Of a DNA stretch of 64,000 nt, positions 7,883 through 43,142 are shown in pieces. The stretch lies in assembly GCF_024346395.1 (NCBI RefSeq), contig NZ_JAGQCW010000001.1:868001-932000 (forward strand). Reading direction: 5' to 3'. A model generated the notes under the pieces. The model ran no database searches. It was not told where the DNA came from and saw only the letters and a list, made by a program, of their open reading frames with translations. The first letter of the stretch is position 1; every line of letters starts with the position of its first letter. The stretch comes from Cyanobium sp. AMD-g. Lineage in GTDB: Bacteria; Cyanobacteriota; Cyanobacteriia; PCC-6307; Cyanobiaceae. The position numbers were made by a program, and so were the translations under genes.

Positions 7883-7991
7883 CACAGCGCGTTATCGGTG
7901 TACTTCCAGCAGGAGCGGACCCAATGCAAGCAAACTCCCTTGCCAACCGATTAAAGATAGGGAATCAGTGGCCAGGCCGAGAGCCAAGCCC

Positions 7992-8996
7992 TCACCCGTC
8001 GAAGCGTGTCACCCTCCACAGGAGCTGCAGCGATCTCTGCAGCAACCGGGAGGTCCTCCGAAAGATGAACCGAGCACCGCGATAGAGCAGGTCATTGAGC
8101 CCATCGACGCGATGCATGACGGACTGCCTTATCCGAAGCAGGAAGAGCTGCAAAGGCTGGGGGAAAAGTGATCTAGGCTCATACAATCTTGCATAGGAGA
8201 TGCCAATTCTGTTGAATTCAGCCAATAGCGCCGGCACCATCTCCCAGCCTTCAGGGTTAAGAAATCGTCGAACGTAATCGAACTTTCCTTCGAGCAGGTC
8301 TTCAGCACAATGATGGTTGAAGTCCCGCTTATTCTGGTAGGCCCGCAACGATCTCCTGGAGAAATCTGTCAACACACACGAAAGATGCTGCCTACTGCTG
8401 ACTCTATGCAGCCCGTAGGGCTTGTAATGAAACTCGAAGTAGATGATGTTGGTGGTCGCCTCGCCTGACCCAAGGCGCGATTTGGCGTGGTGATAACCAT
8501 GGTCTAGAGAACCGCAAGCACCTTGAGCGAAAAAACATTTTGGACTGCAATTTGTAACGGAGTAAAGATGCATTCTACACGGGTTATGCCAGAACTTGTG
8601 CCGAATGAGAAGCACATCCCTGCTCCCTATGTACGGCTGCAGAACCCTTTCGATATCACGCCTTTGACAGGATATTCCCGAGTCCGTCTGACAAGCCAGA
8701 AACTCGTCGCAATCCAGTAAAAAATAAAAGTCAAAGGGATTGGAATGATCTAACTGTTGAATGAAGTTGGCGATCAGGGGTCCACGCTCGCGGTATTCAT
8801 GTCGACTTGAATACTCCCATATAACATTGGCACCGTTGCTCCTTGCACGCTGAAGTGACTGGATAACAGAAGTAGACTTTGATCCATTATCGAAGATGAA
8901 TAGATTCTCAGGACCCAGCAGATCGGCATGATAAAAAAACCAGGGATCAAACAGGATCGTCTCATCCTTTTGCATCATTACGCAGGCAATTCTCAT
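7992..8996 (-). CDS. Family-2/92-like glycosyltransferase, probably acquired
   Basis: 334 residues. The N-terminus (RIACVMMQKDETILFDPWF) and the FIFDNGSKS and FYFLLDCDEF blocks are typical of the Glyco_tranf_2_4/GT92-like group; LLDCDEF supplies the DxD-type metal site. It has no signal peptide or membrane helix. It probably adds a sugar to an envelope polysaccharide; donor and acceptor unknown. Base composition is visibly AT-richer than the neighbours, codon use differs, and an AAAGGAG ribosome-binding site lies 13 bases before the ATG. It stands alone between two high-GC operons, which suggests horizontal gain. Confidence 0.8.
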   Translation of the reverse strand: MRIACVMMQKDETILFDPWFFYHADLLGPENLFIFDNGSKSTSVIQSLQRARSNGANVIWEYSSRHEYRERGPLIANFIQQLDHSNPFDFYFLLDCDEFLACQTDSGISCQRRDIERVLQPYIGSRDVLLIRHKFWHNPCRMHLYSVTNCSPKCFFAQGACGSLDHGYHHAKSRLGSGEATTNIIYFEFHYKPYGLHRVSSRQHLSCVLTDFSRRSLRAYQNKRDFNHHCAEDLLEGKFDYVRRFLNPEGWEMVPALLAEFNRIGISYARLYEPRSLFPQPLQLFLLRIRQSVMHRVDGLNDLLYRGARFIFRRTSRLLQRSLQLLWRVTRFDG

Positions 8997-9009
8997 GTCA
9001 ATTCACCCT

Positions 9010-32413: not shown

Positions 32414-34331
<1,918 letters not shown>

Positions 34332-34595
34332 TGACGGGTCACCGTGCCGCAACAGGCCTTCGCCAGGCCATGGCCAAGCCTGAGCCTGAAGCGGCGCTGA
34401 CAAGCTTTGCCCGGGCAGACCATCCACTGGTTAAATCATCAATTCGCGCAGTTGCCAAAAACCTGCTCCAGAACCCCTGCAGAGATTGACTGTGACGGCA
34501 ACCGCACTGGTGCTGACAGCTCCAGAGGGAACTGCAGCCATCCGGGAAGGAAGGAGAAATCCAGTGCTGAGAGGAATCCTGGTGTCACCCCTGAA

Positions 34596-35984
34596 TCAGT
34601 TTCCGGCTAAAGACGGGATGCTTCTGCGCTGAAAACGATGGCCTGTCACCAGCATCAGCAGAGCTCCAGCGTAAAATGGAACAACAAAAAATTCTATCGC
34701 AAGCTCGCAGAACCCGCTGATTGCCGCGAAGTCACTGAGACCATTATAATGTAAATGCGGGAACAGAAGAAAGATCATTGATGTCGCGACCAGAATCCAT
34801 GCAAGAGCGTATTGGCGCGGATTCAAGTCAGCGCGGCGGTCGACCATGCTGAGCAGGAGCAACAAACTAGGAAGCATATAAATATGCTTATAATCATAGG
34901 AGACTGTCAATATGTAGCATCCCAGCCACGTCCAGCTGTTGATCAGGAAGAATGTCTGCGAGAATCGATCGAAAAAGCTATCTCCGATTACCCGAAAGCG
35001 ATGCTGTAGAGCCGAATGCAATCTCAGCCTCACAGCGAGAACTGCACCGAACACAAGCGCCAGCAGCTTCGAAATGATCAGTCCTCGTATCACCCAGCGC
35101 GCAGAATCAACACCAATCTGTTGTACAAGCGAGACGTTTATATAGCCGATTGCTTTCAGTCCGAAACTATTCATGCCTCCCTCACCATGCGGCAAGGGCG
35201 AGGCAAGCATCCAAGGCAGTGATAGGGCAAGTCCGACCACGCAACCAAAAAGAACCGCCGCCTTCACCGCATGACTTACTCTCCAGCCATGGCTCTTGGT
35301 AACCTGCCCAAACGCGAGCCAACCAACAAAGCCGGCCGCTGGATAAAGCTTGAGAGAAACGGCAAGCAATGTCAACAAAGCGGAAGGCAGCCAAGAGACA
35401 CGATTCCTCAAGCAGATGCAGGCCGCCGTGGCAGTGAGCAACAGGAATATCAGGCTATCTACATTACCTCGTTCGAGCACAAGTTGCGCAGGGAAACTCA
35501 CCAAGATTATGGATAACCAAAGCGGCCATGCCCAAGCTGACCGGAGCAAACCTTTGGAGACACCCAGGAGAACGATGACAAACGCAACTCCGCTGAAAAC
35601 TGCCAACGCCGCGCTCTGTCGAGAAGGAAACCGCAGCCAGCGGAGCAACCAAGTTGCCATCGGCGGATAGCCACTGTCTGGGTAACCACCACCATGCGTG
35701 CCGTACCCATAGGTTGCACAGCTTGCAGCAGCAGACTGATATATCGTCTGGAGTTTAGTTCCACATTCTCCAATCACCGTAATCCATTTCAAGTCTGCGA
35801 AAGCAGGTTGGATCCGCATCTCTCCAAGAATCAAGAACGACTGTTCTTGATGATCACCACCTATCGCGTATCCGACCAAGGATGAGCCCAGATACCACAG
35901 ACACCCAGCCAAGAGACAATAGGCAGCAATTGATGGCAGCTTGCTGCAAAGTCTGCTCTGTGGGCTGACTTCACGGAGTGGCAT
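34596..35984 (-). CDS. GT-C membrane glycosyltransferase (DUF2029/GT87-like)
   Basis: 462 residues from ATG 35984. The frame is open 62 codons further to 36170, but that extension is Thr/Ser/Arg-rich without family features. About ten membrane helices. A long first extracytoplasmic loop carries YPDSGYPPMATWLL, and VLERGNVDSLIFLLL is the typical GT87 block. Such enzymes use polyprenyl-phosphate sugars to glycosylate lipids or glycans outside the membrane. It is divergent from the SDR operon. Confidence 0.75.
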   Translation of the reverse strand: MPLREVSPQSRLCSKLPSIAAYCLLAGCLWYLGSSLVGYAIGGDHQEQSFLILGEMRIQPAFADLKWITVIGECGTKLQTIYQSAAASCATYGYGTHGGGYPDSGYPPMATWLLRWLRFPSRQSAALAVFSGVAFVIVLLGVSKGLLRSAWAWPLWLSIILVSFPAQLVLERGNVDSLIFLLLTATAACICLRNRVSWLPSALLTLLAVSLKLYPAAGFVGWLAFGQVTKSHGWRVSHAVKAAVLFGCVVGLALSLPWMLASPLPHGEGGMNSFGLKAIGYINVSLVQQIGVDSARWVIRGLIISKLLALVFGAVLAVRLRLHSALQHRFRVIGDSFFDRFSQTFFLINSWTWLGCYILTVSYDYKHIYMLPSLLLLLSMVDRRADLNPRQYALAWILVATSMIFLLFPHLHYNGLSDFAAISGFCELAIEFFVVPFYAGALLMLVTGHRFQRRSIPSLAGN

Positions 35985-36577
35985 TGTTGATGCTTTATGC
36001 GTTTCTACGATAGCCTTGCGGATCCATTGTGAAAACCGACCGGAAATGGTCCATGTTTTTTGTGGTGCCCTTTCATTCAGGCTGACGTTTCCCGTAAGGG
36101 GAGAGGGGCGCTTGGTTTGCTTTCCCACCAGATGGAATGGCTCAGTCAGCTCGCTGATCACCGAAACCACTCAACACCTGCCCAAAAGTGTCGGAGGATA
36201 CCGGAGATTGTGCTTCCAGACCAACCTTCCGAGTTGATCAGCCGCCTACCGACCAGGCACCTGTGCGCTGGAAGACAGCCGCTGAGGTGGGCGCCTGCTG
36301 GCGGCTCAAGAAGCCTGCGAACGGATGAAGGGGACTGCCAGAGTTGCCGTGTGCAATGAACGGCTGTGCTCAATGGCCAAATGCCCAAACAGCCTCTATA
36401 AAACCAGGACAAACACGGATACCAACATGCTGCCCCCGCCCGACAGCCTGGACGGCTCAAACGTCGGGAATCATACGGCGGTCTTGGCCAACGGGATTGC
36501 CGCGTCCCAACTTAACATTTTAACAAATAAGTTCGCAGATCCGCAACAGTTGACTTCGTAAATTCACATTCCTCTTC
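35985..36577. other. 593-base AT-rich divergent intergenic region
   Basis: Between the GT-C gene and the SDR gene. Short open frames occur (e.g. 36325-36561) but have no family features or good start context. Promoters in both directions are expected. One weak inverted pair, AGCCGC...GCGGCT, is seen near 36280-36311. No transposon ends recognised. Confidence 0.5.
36497..36526 (+). promoter_or_regulatory. Candidate promoter of the SDR operon
   Basis: TTGCCG, 18 bases, TAACAA, inside an AT-rich patch about 52 bases before the SDR ATG. A weak consensus match, chosen mainly for position. Confidence 0.25.
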
Positions 36578-37630
36578 ATGTCATCGTCTTCGACAAGTCG
36601 TCCGGTTGACCCACAACCCACAGCCAAAGCCGCTCAGATGACCTCAACCGATGAACTCTGGTCCAGCAAGCGCATCCTCATCACGGGTGGCGCTGGATTC
36701 ATCGGATCCACTCTGGCACTTCGTCTTGCAGACCTCGGGGCTCAGGTAACGGTGATTGACAGCCTGGTTCCTGAATATGGCGGTAACCTCTTCAACCTGC
36801 GGGAATGCGAAGATCGCATCCGCATCAATTATTCCGATATTCGCGACACGTTCTCCCTAAAACCATTACTGACAGACGTCGACATTCTCTTCAATCTTGC
36901 AGGGCAGACCAGTCATATGGACTCGATGAGTGAACCACATACCGATCTCAACATCAACTGTGGCGCCCAACTTAATCTTCTCGAAACCTGTCGACGCATC
37001 AACCCCACCATCCGCATCGTGTTTGCCAGCACGCGGCAAATCTATGGCAAGCCCCACTACCTGCCAGTAGACGAAGCCCATCCAATTTCCCCAGTCGACA
37101 TCAATGGCATACACAAATATGCTGCTGAACAGTATTATGGCCTCTATCACAGTCTTTACGGAATCCGATCCTGCATCCTCCGGCTCACCAATACCATCGG
37201 GCCTCGAATGCGCATCAAGGATGCTCGACAGACCTTCGTCGGAATCTGGATCCGCCGCCTCCTGGAGGACGATCCAATCGAGGTCTGGGGTGGCGAACAG
37301 CTCAGGGACTTCAATGATGTCGAAGATGTGGTCGACGCCCTGCTCACCGCAGCCTGGAACGCGAGCAGCTACGGGCAGGTCTACAACCTGGGAAGTGTGC
37401 AGAGAATCAGCCTGCGGCAGTTAGCCGAGCTGATGATCAGCCTTCATGGCGCCGGCGACTTGGTGATCAAGGACTATCCAGAGGAGCGTCGCAAGATCGA
37501 CATCGGTGACTACTACTCCAGCCATGATAAGTTCAGTGAAATTACGGGCTGGAGCCCTAGGATCCCTCTCGAGCAGACACTGGAGCGCACTCTCGCCTTC
37601 TACCAGTCGCACCGGGCTCCCTATCTCTGA
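36578..37630 (+). CDS. NAD-dependent epimerase/dehydratase (extended SDR) with altered catalytic motif
   Basis: 350 residues. The Rossmann GGAGFIG is at 37-43, FNLAGQTSH near 105-113, and the active-site Ser/Thr in FASTRQIYG (149-157). The usual Tyr-x3-Lys is replaced by Asn176-Gly-Ile-His-Lys180. The rest of the fold, including LRLTNTIGPR and DFNDVEDVVDA, is intact. It probably converts a sugar nucleotide for the island's pathway. It is the first gene of a plus-strand operon; DegT follows after 25 bases. Confidence 0.82.
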   Translation: MSSSSTSRPVDPQPTAKAAQMTSTDELWSSKRILITGGAGFIGSTLALRLADLGAQVTVIDSLVPEYGGNLFNLRECEDRIRINYSDIRDTFSLKPLLTDVDILFNLAGQTSHMDSMSEPHTDLNINCGAQLNLLETCRRINPTIRIVFASTRQIYGKPHYLPVDEAHPISPVDINGIHKYAAEQYYGLYHSLYGIRSCILRLTNTIGPRMRIKDARQTFVGIWIRRLLEDDPIEVWGGEQLRDFNDVEDVVDALLTAAWNASSYGQVYNLGSVQRISLRQLAELMISLHGAGDLVIKDYPEERRKIDIGDYYSSHDKFSEITGWSPRIPLEQTLERTLAFYQSHRAPYL

Positions 37631-37655
37631 TCTGATCTCCTCCACGCCCCTGTCC

Positions 37656-38843
37656 ATGGACTCAGTTGCAAGCATGACCCTGCGGGAACGCTGTAATTTC
37701 CCGCTGTTGGACTGCCAGCACTACCGCCAGGCCATCCACGCCGCAGTCGAGAGGGTCGTTGATTCTGGGCAGACGATCCTTTCGGACGGTGTGCGCGGCT
37801 TCGAGGAAGGCTTCGCCGCATGGCTCGGAGGAGGACTCTCGGCCGAGCACTGCCTGGGTGTGGGCAATGGCACCGATGCCCTGGAGCTGGCGATGCGCTG
37901 CGCCGGAGTGGAGCCAGGCGAAGGTGTGATCGTTCCCTCCTTCACCGCCTATGCCACCGTGGCGGCGATCCTGCGCGTCGGCGCTCAACCCATTTTCGTC
38001 GACGTTGAACCTGGACGGCCGGTGCTGAGTTTGATGGAGGTGGAACGCCGGGTGGCGGAAAAGGAGACATCCCCCAGGATCCGAGCCGTCATTGCGGTGC
38101 ATCTCTATGGAGAAGCCTGCGATTTGCACTCCCTGCGCGAACTCTGTCACCGCCACTCCCTTGCCCTCATTGAGGATTGCGCGCAGGCCACAGGAACGAT
38201 TTATGCAGGCAACTCGATCGGCACTTGGGGGGATTTCGCCGCCTTCAGTTTTTATCCCACGAAGAATCTGGCCGCCCTAGGCGATGGGGGCATGCTTGTG
38301 ATTGGCAAGCAGGCGGAGGCAGCTCTTCTGGCGAAGGCCCGGCGCATGCGGCTCTACGGTTGGAACGATCGGAGAGAAGCCGTGCAATTTGGTGCGAATA
38401 GCCGCCTGGATGAGGTGCAGGCATGGATTCTCAGTGGCAAACTCGCGGATTTGGACGAAAAGATCAAAGCCAGAAGAAGACTCGCCCAGAAGTATCGAGA
38501 ACATCTTTCTTCCTGGGTTGGCGAGATGGGCATCACCCTTCCTGAGGAGGGGAGGAACTGGTCACACAGCTATCACCTTTACGTGATCACGGTTGACCCA
38601 GCGAAGCGGCAGGAGATTCTGGCCAAGGGCGCTTCCGCTGGTATTCCCTATGCGGTTCATTACCCACTTGCCTGCCACCAGCATTCCTATATCGCTCAAC
38701 AGCCTGGCGTTCTGCAACATCCTCTGCCCCACAGCGAACGCTTGGCCGACAGCGTTCTGTCCCTGCCTTTGAACCCCTACCTCACGGACGAAGATGTTCA
38801 TACGGTGAGCAGGCATCTGCATTCCGTCCTTGCTGACCTGTAG
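37656..38843 (+). CDS. DegT/DnrJ/EryC1/StrS-family sugar aminotransferase
   Basis: 395 residues from ATG 37656. GVGNGTDALELAM (about 68-80) binds PLP phosphate, IEDCAQATG has Asp174 for the pyridine nitrogen, and FSFYPTKNLAALGDGG has Lys203 for the Schiff base. The C-terminal HYPLACHQH block is typical of sugar aminotransferases. It converts a keto-sugar nucleotide into an amino sugar with glutamate as donor. The partner SDR is directly upstream and the GT2 directly downstream. Confidence 0.92.
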   Translation: MDSVASMTLRERCNFPLLDCQHYRQAIHAAVERVVDSGQTILSDGVRGFEEGFAAWLGGGLSAEHCLGVGNGTDALELAMRCAGVEPGEGVIVPSFTAYATVAAILRVGAQPIFVDVEPGRPVLSLMEVERRVAEKETSPRIRAVIAVHLYGEACDLHSLRELCHRHSLALIEDCAQATGTIYAGNSIGTWGDFAAFSFYPTKNLAALGDGGMLVIGKQAEAALLAKARRMRLYGWNDRREAVQFGANSRLDEVQAWILSGKLADLDEKIKARRRLAQKYREHLSSWVGEMGITLPEEGRNWSHSYHLYVITVDPAKRQEILAKGASAGIPYAVHYPLACHQHSYIAQQPGVLQHPLPHSERLADSVLSLPLNPYLTDEDVHTVSRHLHSVLADL

Positions 38844-38848
38844 TTGCG

Positions 38849-39838
38849 ATGACAACACCTCCCTGCATCGCTTTCAGCCTGATCATTCCTATTTACAGGA
38901 GCGCCTCCATCATTGAGCGCCTGATTACGCGCCTTGAGGCGCTTGATTTTGCGCAACCATGGCAGGTCATCTTCGTAGATGATGGCAGTCCGGATCAGAG
39001 CTATACCCTGCTCATGCACAGACTTGGTTCATCACCCCTAGCAGCCTTGGTCGTACGTCACACCCGCAACTTCGGCGAACATCAAGCGGTCCTCACCGGC
39101 TATCGTCATGCCGAGGGAGAGTATTTCATCAACATTGACGATGATCTGCAGAATCCTCCCGAAGAAGCCCTTCGCTTGCTTGAATATGCAAACACAAATG
39201 AGCTTGACGTTGTCTACGGCAACTATATCGTCAAGAAGCACAATCTATTCCGCAATGCTGGCAGCGGCTTCGCCAATCTTACCGCCCGCCTGCTGCTTGA
39301 TCTGCCGGACTCTTACTATCTCTCAAGCTTCCGCTGCGTGAGTCGACTGATCGGAAAGAAAGTCGCCGAGAATTGTAGTCCCTACGTCTATATTGATGGT
39401 CTGCTTTCCCAATCGACCAATCTGATCAGCAGCCTGGATGTGCGCCATGATCCACGCGATGACGGCACAAGTGGCTACAACCTTCGCCGGCTGATTCGAC
39501 TCTGGCTGGTGATTCTTACCAGCTTTTCGTTAATGCCGCTCCGATTTGCCACCCTTGTGGGCCTAGGGGCTGCTGCACTTGGTGGGCTGAGTATCCTGTA
39601 CATCCTCGTCAGGGCCGCCTTCGGCGCAGTGGAGGTGGTGGGATGGCCGTCGGTGATCTCTGCAATTCTCTTCTTCGGCGGCATTCAGTGCCTGCTATTG
39701 GGTGTGATGGGGGAATACATTGGCCGCGTTTATCTTACGGTGTACGGCAAACCACAGGCCCATATCCGCTCGGTGGAATGGTGCGGCAATCTCGCACTGC
39801 CTCTGAATCGGCAGCCGTCCCGATCCACGGAAGCCTGA
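38849..39838 (+). CDS. Polyprenyl-phosphate glycosyltransferase, GT2 (ArnC/GtrB-like)
   Basis: 329 residues. GT-A fold with VDDGSPDQS (43-51) and the metal motif INIDDDLQNPPEE (95-107). Two C-terminal membrane helices (about 217-240 and 252-275) end in GEYIGRVYLTVYGKPQ, the hallmark of the ArnC/GtrB/DPM1-like group that loads a sugar onto undecaprenyl phosphate. GtrA follows with a TGATG overlap, the usual partner order. Confidence 0.9.
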   Translation: MTTPPCIAFSLIIPIYRSASIIERLITRLEALDFAQPWQVIFVDDGSPDQSYTLLMHRLGSSPLAALVVRHTRNFGEHQAVLTGYRHAEGEYFINIDDDLQNPPEEALRLLEYANTNELDVVYGNYIVKKHNLFRNAGSGFANLTARLLLDLPDSYYLSSFRCVSRLIGKKVAENCSPYVYIDGLLSQSTNLISSLDVRHDPRDDGTSGYNLRRLIRLWLVILTSFSLMPLRFATLVGLGAAALGGLSILYILVRAAFGAVEVVGWPSVISAILFFGGIQCLLLGVMGEYIGRVYLTVYGKPQAHIRSVEWCGNLALPLNRQPSRSTEA

Positions 39839-40299
39839 TGAACCGGGTCCCCCGGATGCGAAAGATTCCCCTTCTTCGCTTCACCGTGGTGCGCTTCGGC
39901 ATCGTGGCTTTGCTTGGCGAGGGCCTGTACTTTCTTCTCTACGGCCTGTTCCTGACCCTCACTGGCAGCACCTCTGCCACCCTCGCCCTCGCCGGTGGAC
40001 TCTGCATTCTCGTCAACGCCTATTCCCACTCCCGGCTCACCTTCCGGGTGCGGTTCAGCAAGCGATTGCTGCTGGGCTACATGCAGATCCAACTGTTCGG
40101 GTTCGGTCTGGCTTTCTTCAGTGGTCTTGCCCTTGAACAAGCGGGCACCGGCAAGTGGTGGATCGCCCTGATCACCTATGCACTCTGGAGCACGGCCTCC
40201 TTTATTCTCACCAGGGTCTTGTACAGGAGCCAAGCCAACAGCCCAACATCAGATCTTGCCAACCATTCTCCAGATACGGTGAACCCCCATGCAGATTGA
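39838..40299 (+). CDS. GtrA-like membrane protein, putative lipid-sugar flippase
   Basis: 153 residues from ATG 39838, which overlaps the GT2 stop. Four membrane helices (about 18-38, 42-60, 80-100, 112-132) with the family's N-terminal FTVVRFGIVALLGEGLYFLLY. GtrA proteins are thought to flip polyprenyl-phosphate-linked sugars. The last 11 bases overlap the methyltransferase start. Confidence 0.85.
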   Translation: MNRVPRMRKIPLLRFTVVRFGIVALLGEGLYFLLYGLFLTLTGSTSATLALAGGLCILVNAYSHSRLTFRVRFSKRLLLGYMQIQLFGFGLAFFSGLALEQAGTGKWWIALITYALWSTASFILTRVLYRSQANSPTSDLANHSPDTVNPHAD

Positions 40300-41017
40300 T
40301 GAGTACCGGAAGCTTGCCGAAACGGAAGATGGCATGTGGTATTTCCATGCTCTCAATCAGCGCATGCTTCTTCCCTTACAGCCCTGGCGGGGCAAACCGG
40401 CTCGCGTTCTCGACGCCGGATGCGGGACGGGCGGGCTGATTCGGACCCTCTCCAGTCAAGAACCCCAATGGACCATCACCGGGCTCGACTTTTCGCCGAT
40501 CGCCTGCTCCCTGGCCCGCGAGAGCACATCAGCCGAGACGGTGGAAGGCTCCATCACGGAACTGCCCTTTCCTGGGGCGAGCTTCGACATCGTCACCTGC
40601 GCTGATGTCCTTTCCCAGGTACCGGACGGATCGATGGCTCTGCGGGAATTCGAGCGCGTTCTGAGGCCGGGCGGTGTTGTGGTGATCAACGTGGCCGCCT
40701 ATGGCTGGATGTGGTCCTACCACGATCAGACTTGCGAAACACGCCATCGCTACCGCAGAAGTGAACTGCTGCGCATGGTGCGAGCCTGCGGTCTGCGACC
40801 CCTCCAGGCAAGCTACGCCAATATGTTCGTTTTTCCGCTCATCATTGCGCGCAGGAAAATCCTTCCCCCCAAAGCTGCAACAAGCGATGTGCAGCAGTAT
40901 CCGGCTGCGGTGAACAGTTTTTGTGGTGCGATGGCGCGCCTTGAGCACGCCTGGTTGCGCCGGGGTGGATCTTTCCCGACCGGTTGCTCAGTTTTCCTGG
41001 CCGCCAGCAAGTCCTGA
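40289..41017 (+). CDS. SAM-dependent class I methyltransferase
   Basis: 242 residues. Motif I LDAGCGTGG (41-49), ITGLDFSP (motif II), ELPFPGASFDIVTCADVL and a LRPGGVVVINV post-motif. This is a Methyltransf_11-type enzyme. CETRHRYRRSELLRMV resembles family members acting on lipid-linked or sugar substrates. It closes the island operon and may methylate the glycan. Confidence 0.88.
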   Translation: MQIDEYRKLAETEDGMWYFHALNQRMLLPLQPWRGKPARVLDAGCGTGGLIRTLSSQEPQWTITGLDFSPIACSLARESTSAETVEGSITELPFPGASFDIVTCADVLSQVPDGSMALREFERVLRPGGVVVINVAAYGWMWSYHDQTCETRHRYRRSELLRMVRACGLRPLQASYANMFVFPLIIARRKILPPKAATSDVQQYPAAVNSFCGAMARLEHAWLRRGGSFPTGCSVFLAASKS

Positions 41018-41105
41018 AGGGATGGCGTTCGGGGGCGGGGAGATCGGCAGATGCCGGAGCCCATTTGTACAGGCCAGCTCCGTTCAAGCCATGGCGAAGG
41101 GCTGA

Positions 41106-41393: not shown

Positions 41394-43142
<1,749 letters not shown>

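What the first reader, a model, noticed from the sequence alone, without database searches (positions are those of the whole stretch)
34596..41017. Candidate complete pathway for decorating a surface glycan with an amino sugar
The island encodes each step of a make-load-flip-transfer scheme: SDR and DegT (amino sugar nucleotide), ArnC/GtrB-like GT2 with two C-terminal helices (loading on undecaprenyl phosphate), GtrA (flipping), a divergent GT-C GT87-like enzyme (transfer outside) and a methyltransferase (capping). It parallels the Arn system for aminoarabinose but with unrelated transferase and an unusual SDR. Composition and position suggest gain by transfer. Such a system could change phage or grazer recognition.
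Basis: inference. Interest (0 to 1): 0.65.

Follow-up and report, generated by a model that had tools for sequence, protein, structure and literature searches.

The report
Amino-sugar make, load, flip island
A small island in a picocyanobacterial genome carries five linked genes that probably make an amino sugar, hang it on a membrane lipid and flip it outwards; its first enzyme belongs to a widespread, unnamed enzyme group that lacks the usual catalytic tyrosine, while the last transfer step is not secured by the gene next door.

Summary
The six genes are real and lie in a low-GC insert (0.560 against 0.697) between fabG and groEL2. Six of six genomes chosen for comparison have an empty site there. 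The five plus-strand genes (SDR, DegT, GT2, GtrA, MT) are spaced like an operon.

Across related loci SDR-DegT is a near-fixed pair (63 of 68). MT goes with the GT2 (23 of 26 GT2-bearing loci, 4 of 43 others), and so does GtrA (15 of 26, 0 of 43). The GT2 is of the ArnC/GtrB type, so make-load-flip holds as inference.

The GT-C is not a conserved partner: intact only here among 42 genus genomes, frameshifted in one sister, a remnant in another, absent from others with the cassette at this site. Its predicted fold is nearest PimE (GT87), not ArnT. "Complete pathway" is not shown.

The most interesting part is the SDR. In 87 of 87 family members Asn replaces the catalytic Tyr, and the motif TRQ...Nx3K matches no class in a 2022 table of nucleotide-sugar dehydratases. 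It may be a new SDR class coupled to an aminotransferase. Substrate and product are unknown.

The parts
34332..41104 (.). Insert (island) between fabG and the small membrane-protein gene before groEL2
   Evidence: Empty site in G148, G132, G062, G035, G048, G004; junctions printed; GC 0.560 against 0.697. By eye, no target-site duplication and no integrase gene.
34596..35984 (-). GT-C membrane glycosyltransferase, GT87/PimE-like, 462 aa (long form starts at 36170)
   Evidence: Pfam GT87 19.5 bits, under cut-off 25; predicted fold nearest PimE 9dm5, Z 20.9, rmsd 4.9, 349 aligned; ArnT Z 10.8.
36578..37630 (+). Extended SDR of the nucleotide-sugar type with Asn in place of the catalytic Tyr
   Evidence: PF01370 162 bits; 87 of 87 family members have Asn176; model pLDDT 84 with canonical fold.
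37103..37105 (+). Codon of Asn176 (AAT), aligned with the Tyr of YxxxK
37656..38843 (+). DegT/DnrJ/EryC1/StrS sugar aminotransferase
   Evidence: PF01041 320 bits; nearest solved 7b0d and 2oga, then 7n63, 8e75, QdtB 3frk and WbpE 3nyu.
38849..39838 (+). GT2 polyprenyl-phosphate sugar transferase (ArnC/GtrB type) with C-terminal membrane helices
   Evidence: Nearest solved ArnC 9bhc E 8e-39, later GtrB sll0501 5ekp; DDDxQ and RxxGxSxY kept in 42 of 42 homologous segments, duplicate loci included; PHROG GtrB-like.
39838..40299 (+). GtrA-type small membrane protein, probable lipid-linked sugar flippase
   Evidence: PF04138 19.3 bits here, under cut-off; 4 of 4 relatives also match, best 1.3e-9.
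40289..41017 (+). Class I SAM methyltransferase that goes with the GT2
   Evidence: PF08241 82 bits; near in 23 of 26 GT2-bearing loci against 4 of 43 others; GT2-GtrA-MT trio without SDR-DegT in G157.

Best explanation
The island is an amino-sugar export cassette lying between fabG and groEL2. Making: the Tyr-less SDR oxidises a nucleotide sugar to a keto sugar and the DegT enzyme aminates it. Loading and flipping: the GT2 moves the amino sugar from its nucleotide to undecaprenyl phosphate on the inner face, GtrA flips the lipid-linked sugar, and the methyltransferase modifies the sugar at or near the lipid-linked stage. A GT-C enzyme outside then attaches it to a surface glycan or another acceptor. 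The neighbouring PimE-like GT-C is a candidate for that last step in this strain only, comparable to the variable third component of Gtr systems. Shown here: gene identities, linkage, the Asn substitution, the insert, and the lack of conservation of the GT-C. Inferred: every reaction, the identity of the sugar, and the acceptor.
For: SDR-DegT pairing in 63 of 68 loci; with a tighter cut, 61 of 68 against 2 of 18 for other SDRs in the same loci. GT2 with MT: 23 of 26 against 4 of 43; with GtrA: 15 of 26 against 0 of 43 (in the stricter set, 20 of 21 against 3 of 37 and 13 of 21 against 0 of 37). GT2 matches under 1e-100 in 7 of 151 family genomes, all among the 10 that carry the SDR at 53% identity or more. 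GT2 nearest to ArnC and GtrB. GtrA relatives. Same site in several genomes and empty sites. GT-C fold of the polyprenyl-P-sugar type.
Against: No substrate, product or acceptor is known. The loci are not independent: 14 of the 21 GT2-bearing loci are picocyanobacterial. G165 and G168 have SDR-DegT-GT2 with neither GtrA nor MT near. Outside the window's clade the MTs are only 27 to 36% identical and lie elsewhere in the gene order. In G157 making and loading genes lie on different contigs of a draft genome. In G090 an IS3-type element interrupts DegT. Loci without GT2 often have other transferases (GT4-like by eye), so the sugar may be used in the cytosol there. At 1e-30 the GT2 search hits 17 of 151 genomes, the extra ones at about 28 to 33% identity.
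Confidence: 0.6

Rival explanations
1. One reading: the six genes form one dedicated pathway and the adjacent GT-C is the acceptor-specific last transferase.
For: It lies inside the same insert, divergent from the operon. Its fold is nearest PimE, which uses a polyprenyl-phosphate sugar donor (PMC12041525 passages). Gtr systems have a type-specific third transferase (PMC7389260 passages).
Against: Homologue in 1 of 26 GT2-bearing loci; frameshift in G113, remnant in G005, a sequence-unrelated 8-helix protein in G090, none between fabG and SDR in G165 and G181. Relatives at 25 to 35% identity elsewhere in the genus: 9 of 11 regions show no other island homologue.
Confidence: 0.25
2. The GT-C is an unrelated or decaying passenger and the last step is done by another GT-C elsewhere in the genome.
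For: The pattern in sister genomes; the five-gene operon stays intact without it in G005.
Against: It is intact here. The G113 frameshift is one extra G in a run of seven and could be a sequencing error or a slippage switch.
Confidence: 0.5
3. The SDR is not catalytic (a pseudoenzyme) and only assists DegT.
For: The catalytic Tyr is missing in 87 of 87 members, and no acid/base pair follows the Thr as in the 4,6-dehydratases of the review table.
Against: The NAD-binding glycines (86 or 87 of 87), Thr152, Lys180, Arg153, His113, Gln110 (87 of 87) and Gln154 (86 of 87) are kept. Tyr-less WbpM and PglF are active (PMC8987622, section 19).
Confidence: 0.12
4. The pair makes an ordinary 4-amino sugar by standard 4,6-dehydratase chemistry.
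For: The best curated name by score is LegB-like dehydratase (119 bits, cut-off 475). An SDR-DegT pair is the usual layout for such sugars (recalled).
Against: The motif TRQ...Nx3K lacks the acid-base pair and the Tyr or Met of the listed 4,6-dehydratases.
Confidence: 0.2

Closest known systems
Arn system (aminoarabinose on lipid A)
   Same: Keto sugar plus DegT-type aminotransferase, GT2 loading on undecaprenyl phosphate, flipping, transfer outside by a GT-C (scheme recalled). The GT2 here is nearest to ArnC among solved proteins.
   Different: The SDR lacks the usual Tyr. No formyltransferase or deformylase among the six genes scanned. GtrA-type protein instead of ArnE/F. The GT-C is PimE-like (Z 20.9) rather than ArnT-like (Z 10.8).
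GtrA-GtrB-Gtr(type) three-component glycosylation
   Same: GtrB-like GT2 directly followed by GtrA, with a third transferase that varies or is absent.
   Different: It brings its own sugar-making pair and a methyltransferase.
WbpM/PglF Tyr-less UDP-GlcNAc 4,6-dehydratases
   Same: Nucleotide-sugar SDRs that lack the catalytic Tyr.
   Different: They have TDK...Mx3K; here TRQ...Nx3K in a protein of 350 aa.
PimE (GT87 mannosyltransferase)
   Same: Predicted fold of the island's GT-C and its likely donor type.
   Different: No PDB sequence hit with the GT-C profile; Pfam GT87 score under cut-off; acceptor unknown.

Membership tests
Extended nucleotide-sugar SDR | Rossmann fold with glycine-rich NAD motif | tested here: met
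   Gly37, Gly40 and Gly43 in 86, 87 and 87 of 87 members; VIA Z 36.8 to 42.0 for the 50 entries listed.
Extended nucleotide-sugar SDR | Catalytic [ST]...YxxxK | tested here: not met
   Thr152 and Lys180 kept, Tyr replaced by Asn in 87 of 87; Tyr in 24 of 25 distinct other SDRs from the loci held.
NDP-sugar 4,6-dehydratase | Acid/base pair after the Ser/Thr (DE, DK or SE) | tested here: not met
   Arg153 in 87 of 87 and Gln154 in 86 of 87 (one X) against Table 1 of PMC8987622.
WbpM/PglF class | TDK...Mx3K | tested here: not met
   TRQ...Nx3K.
DegT sugar aminotransferase | PF01041 above cut-off | tested here: met
   320 bits, cut-off 19.8.
DegT acting at C3 (QdtB, WbpE) rather than C4 (ArnB); positions recalled | Nearest characterised relatives | tested here: inconclusive
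   QdtB 192 and WbpE 185 bits against 119 to 141 for ArnB-named chains, but PseC leads in NCBIfam.
ArnC/GtrB polyprenyl-phosphate GT2 | GT2 domain, C-terminal membrane helices, nearest solved relatives ArnC and GtrB | tested here: met
ArnC equivalog | NF007986 above cut-off | tested here: not met
   141 bits, cut-off 529.
GtrA family | PF04138 above cut-off | tested here: inconclusive
   19.3 bits, cut-off 26.1, for the window protein; 4 of 4 relatives also match, best 1.3e-9.
GT87 | PF09594 above cut-off | tested here: not met
   19.5 bits, cut-off 25.
GT87 | PimE-like GT-C fold | tested here: met
   Foldseek E 3.9e-6; VIA Z 20.9, rmsd 4.9, 349 aligned, next non-PimE row Z 15.3 (yeast ALG3); model pLDDT 73.7.
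Arn system | ArnT-type (GT83) transferase plus formylation/deformylation genes (recalled) | tested here: not met
   GT-C nearest PimE; no such genes among the six scanned.
Gtr three-component system | Third transferase required for surface decoration | not testable with these tools
   Needs a gene deletion and sugar analysis.

The most novel reading that the evidence does not exclude
The SDR founds a new class of nucleotide-sugar SDR (TRQ...Nx3K) that oxidises its sugar without a catalytic Tyr and hands the keto sugar to its partner DegT. This would be a widespread, uncharacterised amino-sugar pathway, found under 18 phylum-level labels, that feeds either cytosolic transferases or the lipid-carrier route.
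Probability: 0.45. Interest if true: 0.68.

Novelty: new variant of a known kind. Interest (0 to 1): 0.5.

Why it matters
An SDR group that has replaced its catalytic Tyr in all 87 members examined, and is nearly always beside one aminotransferase, is a direct and testable lead to an amino sugar of unknown structure and to a new SDR mechanism. In picocyanobacteria the cassette would change cell-surface chemistry, which could matter for phage and grazer recognition (inference). The case also shows that a neighbouring GT-C should not be counted into a pathway without a conservation test.

Tried and rejected
Looked for the GT-C as a conserved partner: rejected. Looked for a substitute GT-C beside other GT2-bearing cassettes: several multi-helix proteins lie nearby, for example PMT_2 in L104 and L122 and a sub-threshold GtrII match in L136; 6 of the 10 scanned match no Pfam family. 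Such ORFs are also common in loci without GT2 (29 of 54), so this shows nothing.

Considered that the MT belongs with SDR-DegT: rejected by the counts. Considered that the MT belongs with the GT-C, since in G174 a broken MT homologue lies beside a distant GT-C: one case only, and MT homologues without any other island homologue near exist in G185, G174 and G178.

Looked for a known name for the SDR: NCBIfam gives none above cut-off. Paper searches listed no paper that I recognised as describing it; subscription papers are mostly not held. Only PMC8987622 (passages and sections 14 and 19), PMC12041525 (passages) and PMC7389260 (passages) were opened; all others were seen as listings only. PDB codes of the nearest DegT enzymes gave no useful paper. 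The PimE catalytic residues could not be matched by sequence, because the GT-C profile finds no PDB chain. No mobile-element signature seen by eye at the junctions. Trees: the careful search did not finish; the quick tree left out 17 of the 88 rows by my own filter, so the tree with all 88 rows (quick) is the one used.

On re-checking I found that the same site is used in more genomes than I had first noted.
Full report
What is there. The window lies in contig 1 of a 3.1-Mb genome. Among the named loci its SDR is nearest to that of Synechococcus sp. CCY 0621, then an uncultured cyanobacterium and Cyanobium sp. CACIAM 14, so it is a picocyanobacterium of the Cyanobium kind (inference from these names). 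Between fabG (33579-34331) and a small membrane-protein gene before groEL2 (41427-43142) lies a stretch of GC 0.560 in a window of 0.697. It holds one minus-strand gene, the GT-C, and five plus-strand genes spaced like an operon: SDR, DegT, GT2, GtrA, MT.

It is an insert, and the site is used more than once. In six of six genomes chosen for this test, fabG is followed at once by the small membrane-protein gene and groEL2, with about 320 to 470 bases between fabG and groEL2. Three of the six are genus members without the SDR (G148, G132, G062); three are of the family, of which G035 and G048 carry the SDR elsewhere. Four genus genomes carry the five-gene cassette at this site: the window's own, G113, G005 and G090, with GC 0.56 to 0.59 against 0.70 to 0.72 in the flanks. 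A fifth, G165, has a three-gene version (SDR, DegT, GT2) between fabG and the small membrane-protein gene, without groEL2 there. On short contigs G181 shows fabG just before the SDR, G168 shows the small membrane-protein gene just after the GT2, and a contig titled Bacteroidetes (L084) shows fabG before the SDR. In the other 11 of the 18 genus genomes with the SDR (18 of 42) none of the flank genes was found in the 5 to 18 kb held. Whether the cassette was gained here or lost elsewhere cannot be told.

Relatives. A quick tree of 88 SDRs puts 22 picocyanobacterial rows, the window among them, in one group (SH-aLRT 98). Five further rows from the window's genus and family lie elsewhere, four of them together (SH-aLRT 100). 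The 18 phylum-level labels need 30 changes where 17 is the least possible; shuffles give 53.0. Labels come from record titles, mostly draft bins; two of the 22 rows bear other phylum names. A complete plasmid of Azospirillum lipoferum 4B also has the SDR-DegT pair.

Modules. One scan of a public genome set found 441 relatives and kept the best 80. With eight more from the family and genus searches I used 88 loci. Of the 68 with at least 2 kb on each side, 63 have a DegT within 2.5 kb; L104, L131, L134, L155 and L156 do not. With a tighter cut it is 61 of 68, against 2 of 18 for other SDRs in the same loci. Of 69 loci with at least 5 kb downstream, 26 have a GT2 of this type. The MT is near in 23 of these 26 and in 4 of the 43 others; GtrA in 15 of 26 and 0 of 43; the GT-C in 1 of 26 and 0 of 43. 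In a stricter set of 58 the figures are 20 of 21 and 3 of 37, 13 of 21 and 0 of 37, 1 of 21 and 0 of 37. The GT2-bearing loci without MT include L082 and L085, which are G165 and G168. Loci are not independent; 14 of the 21 are picocyanobacterial. Outside the window's clade the MT is only 27 to 36% identical, and in the other picocyanobacteria the order is mostly SDR-DegT-MT-GT2-GtrA. In 151 family genomes GT2 matches under 1e-100 occur in 7, all among the 10 with the SDR at 53% identity or more; at 1e-30 there are 17. In G157 a GT2-GtrA-MT trio stands beside genes that look like kai genes (by eye), while its SDR and DegT are on another contig. So the MT goes with the loading step more than with the making step.

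The GT-C. Among 42 genus genomes it is intact only in the window's own. In G113 one extra G in a run of seven breaks the frame at codon 330 of the long form. In G005 only a 68-residue stretch matches, about 27 residues of it after the probable start. In G090 a 415-residue protein with eight predicted helices and no sequence match lies in its place. In G165 and G181 fabG and SDR are under 200 bases apart. Distant relatives (25 to 35% identity) exist in 10 other genus genomes, and G113 has a second one. Of 11 such regions tested, 9 hold no other island homologue, one a broken MT, one a 23% SDR match. The predicted structure (mean pLDDT 73.7, pTM 0.80) is nearest PimE: Foldseek E 3.9e-6, VIA Z 20.9, rmsd 4.9, 349 aligned; ArnT reaches Z 10.8. 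PimE uses a polyprenyl-phosphate mannose donor (PMC12041525, passages). The GT-C is therefore a credible last transferase in this strain, but not a conserved part of the system.

Loading and flipping. The GT2 is nearest to ArnC (E 8e-39), then GtrB, among solved proteins and fits the PHROG family 'GtrB-like O-antigen conversion'. Its DDDxQ and RxxGxSxY motifs are kept in 42 of 42 homologous segments, duplicate loci included. GtrA scores below the Pfam cut-off itself, but 4 of 4 relatives also match, the best at 1.3e-9. GtrB-GtrA systems load a sugar on undecaprenyl phosphate and flip it (PMC7389260, passages).

The SDR. Its model (pLDDT 84) is a standard nucleotide-sugar SDR fold (Z up to 42.0). 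In 87 of 87 distinct family members (at least 50% identical over at least 300 residues) residue 176 is Asn, where 24 of 25 distinct other SDRs from the loci held have Tyr. Human UXS1 and TM0509, the nearest solved enzymes by two searches, have Tyr there. The remoter relatives checked (32 to 37% identical: L024, a phage, a plasmid) have Tyr; the plasmid one lacks the Lys. Thr152, Lys180, Arg153, His113 and Gln110 are invariant, Gln154 and Gln131 in 86 of 87; Arg153, Gln154 and Gln131 occur in none of the other SDRs. A 2022 review of nucleotide-sugar dehydratases lists one Tyr-less class, WbpM/PglF with TDK...Mx3K, and names an acid and a base for all its dehydratases but one (PMC8987622, sections 14 and 19). 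TRQ...Nx3K is not among them. So by motif this is not a known 4,6-dehydratase, and the first chemical step is open. The DegT partner is nearer to solved QdtB and WbpE than to ArnB, which are C3 and C4 enzymes as recalled, but this does not settle the position of the amino group.

How it most likely works. SDR and DegT make a nucleotide-linked amino sugar; the GT2 loads it on undecaprenyl phosphate; GtrA flips it; the MT acts on the sugar at or near that stage; a GT-C, perhaps the neighbour in this strain, attaches it outside. Gene identity, linkage and conservation are shown. Reactions, sugar and acceptor are inferred.

Verdict. As a decoration island it is a variant of known Gtr/Arn-like systems. 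The Tyr-less SDR class with its near-fixed aminotransferase partner is the part a specialist would want to test.

Noticed in passing
L016 7433-8748 (genome G090): An IS3-type element (orfA and orfB by eye) of about 1.3 kb with inverted ends sits in DegT after about codon 22, so the cassette may be broken or altered in that strain.
   Followed up: partly
L014 about 7886-7893 (genome G113): A run of seven G breaks the GT-C by one base; it may be a sequencing error, decay or a slippage switch.
   Followed up: partly
L066 742-4350 (genome G165): A lean SDR-DegT-GT2 cassette at the same fabG site, GC 0.411 against 0.537 after it, with no GtrA, MT, GT-C or groEL2 match there.
   Followed up: partly
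L203 4001-4954: A 735-kb uncultured phage codes an SDR 36% identical to this one, with the normal Tyr.
   Followed up: partly
L199 8008-10375: GT2-GtrA-MT trio beside genes that look like kai genes, without SDR-DegT near.
   Followed up: partly
L089 and L084: Contigs titled Bifidobacterium breve and Bacteroidetes group with picocyanobacterial SDRs; L089 lies in a genome of the window's own genus (G179) and L084 has fabG before the SDR as in the window's relatives, so the titles look wrong.
   Followed up: partly
window 34332-34420 and 41070-41104: A short imperfect inverted repeat (CCTTCGCC..CCATGGC against GCCATGGCGAAGG) lies near the two ends of the insert, read by eye.
   Followed up: no
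window 8001-9000: Another sharp GC dip (0.492 against about 0.70) elsewhere in the window.
   Followed up: no
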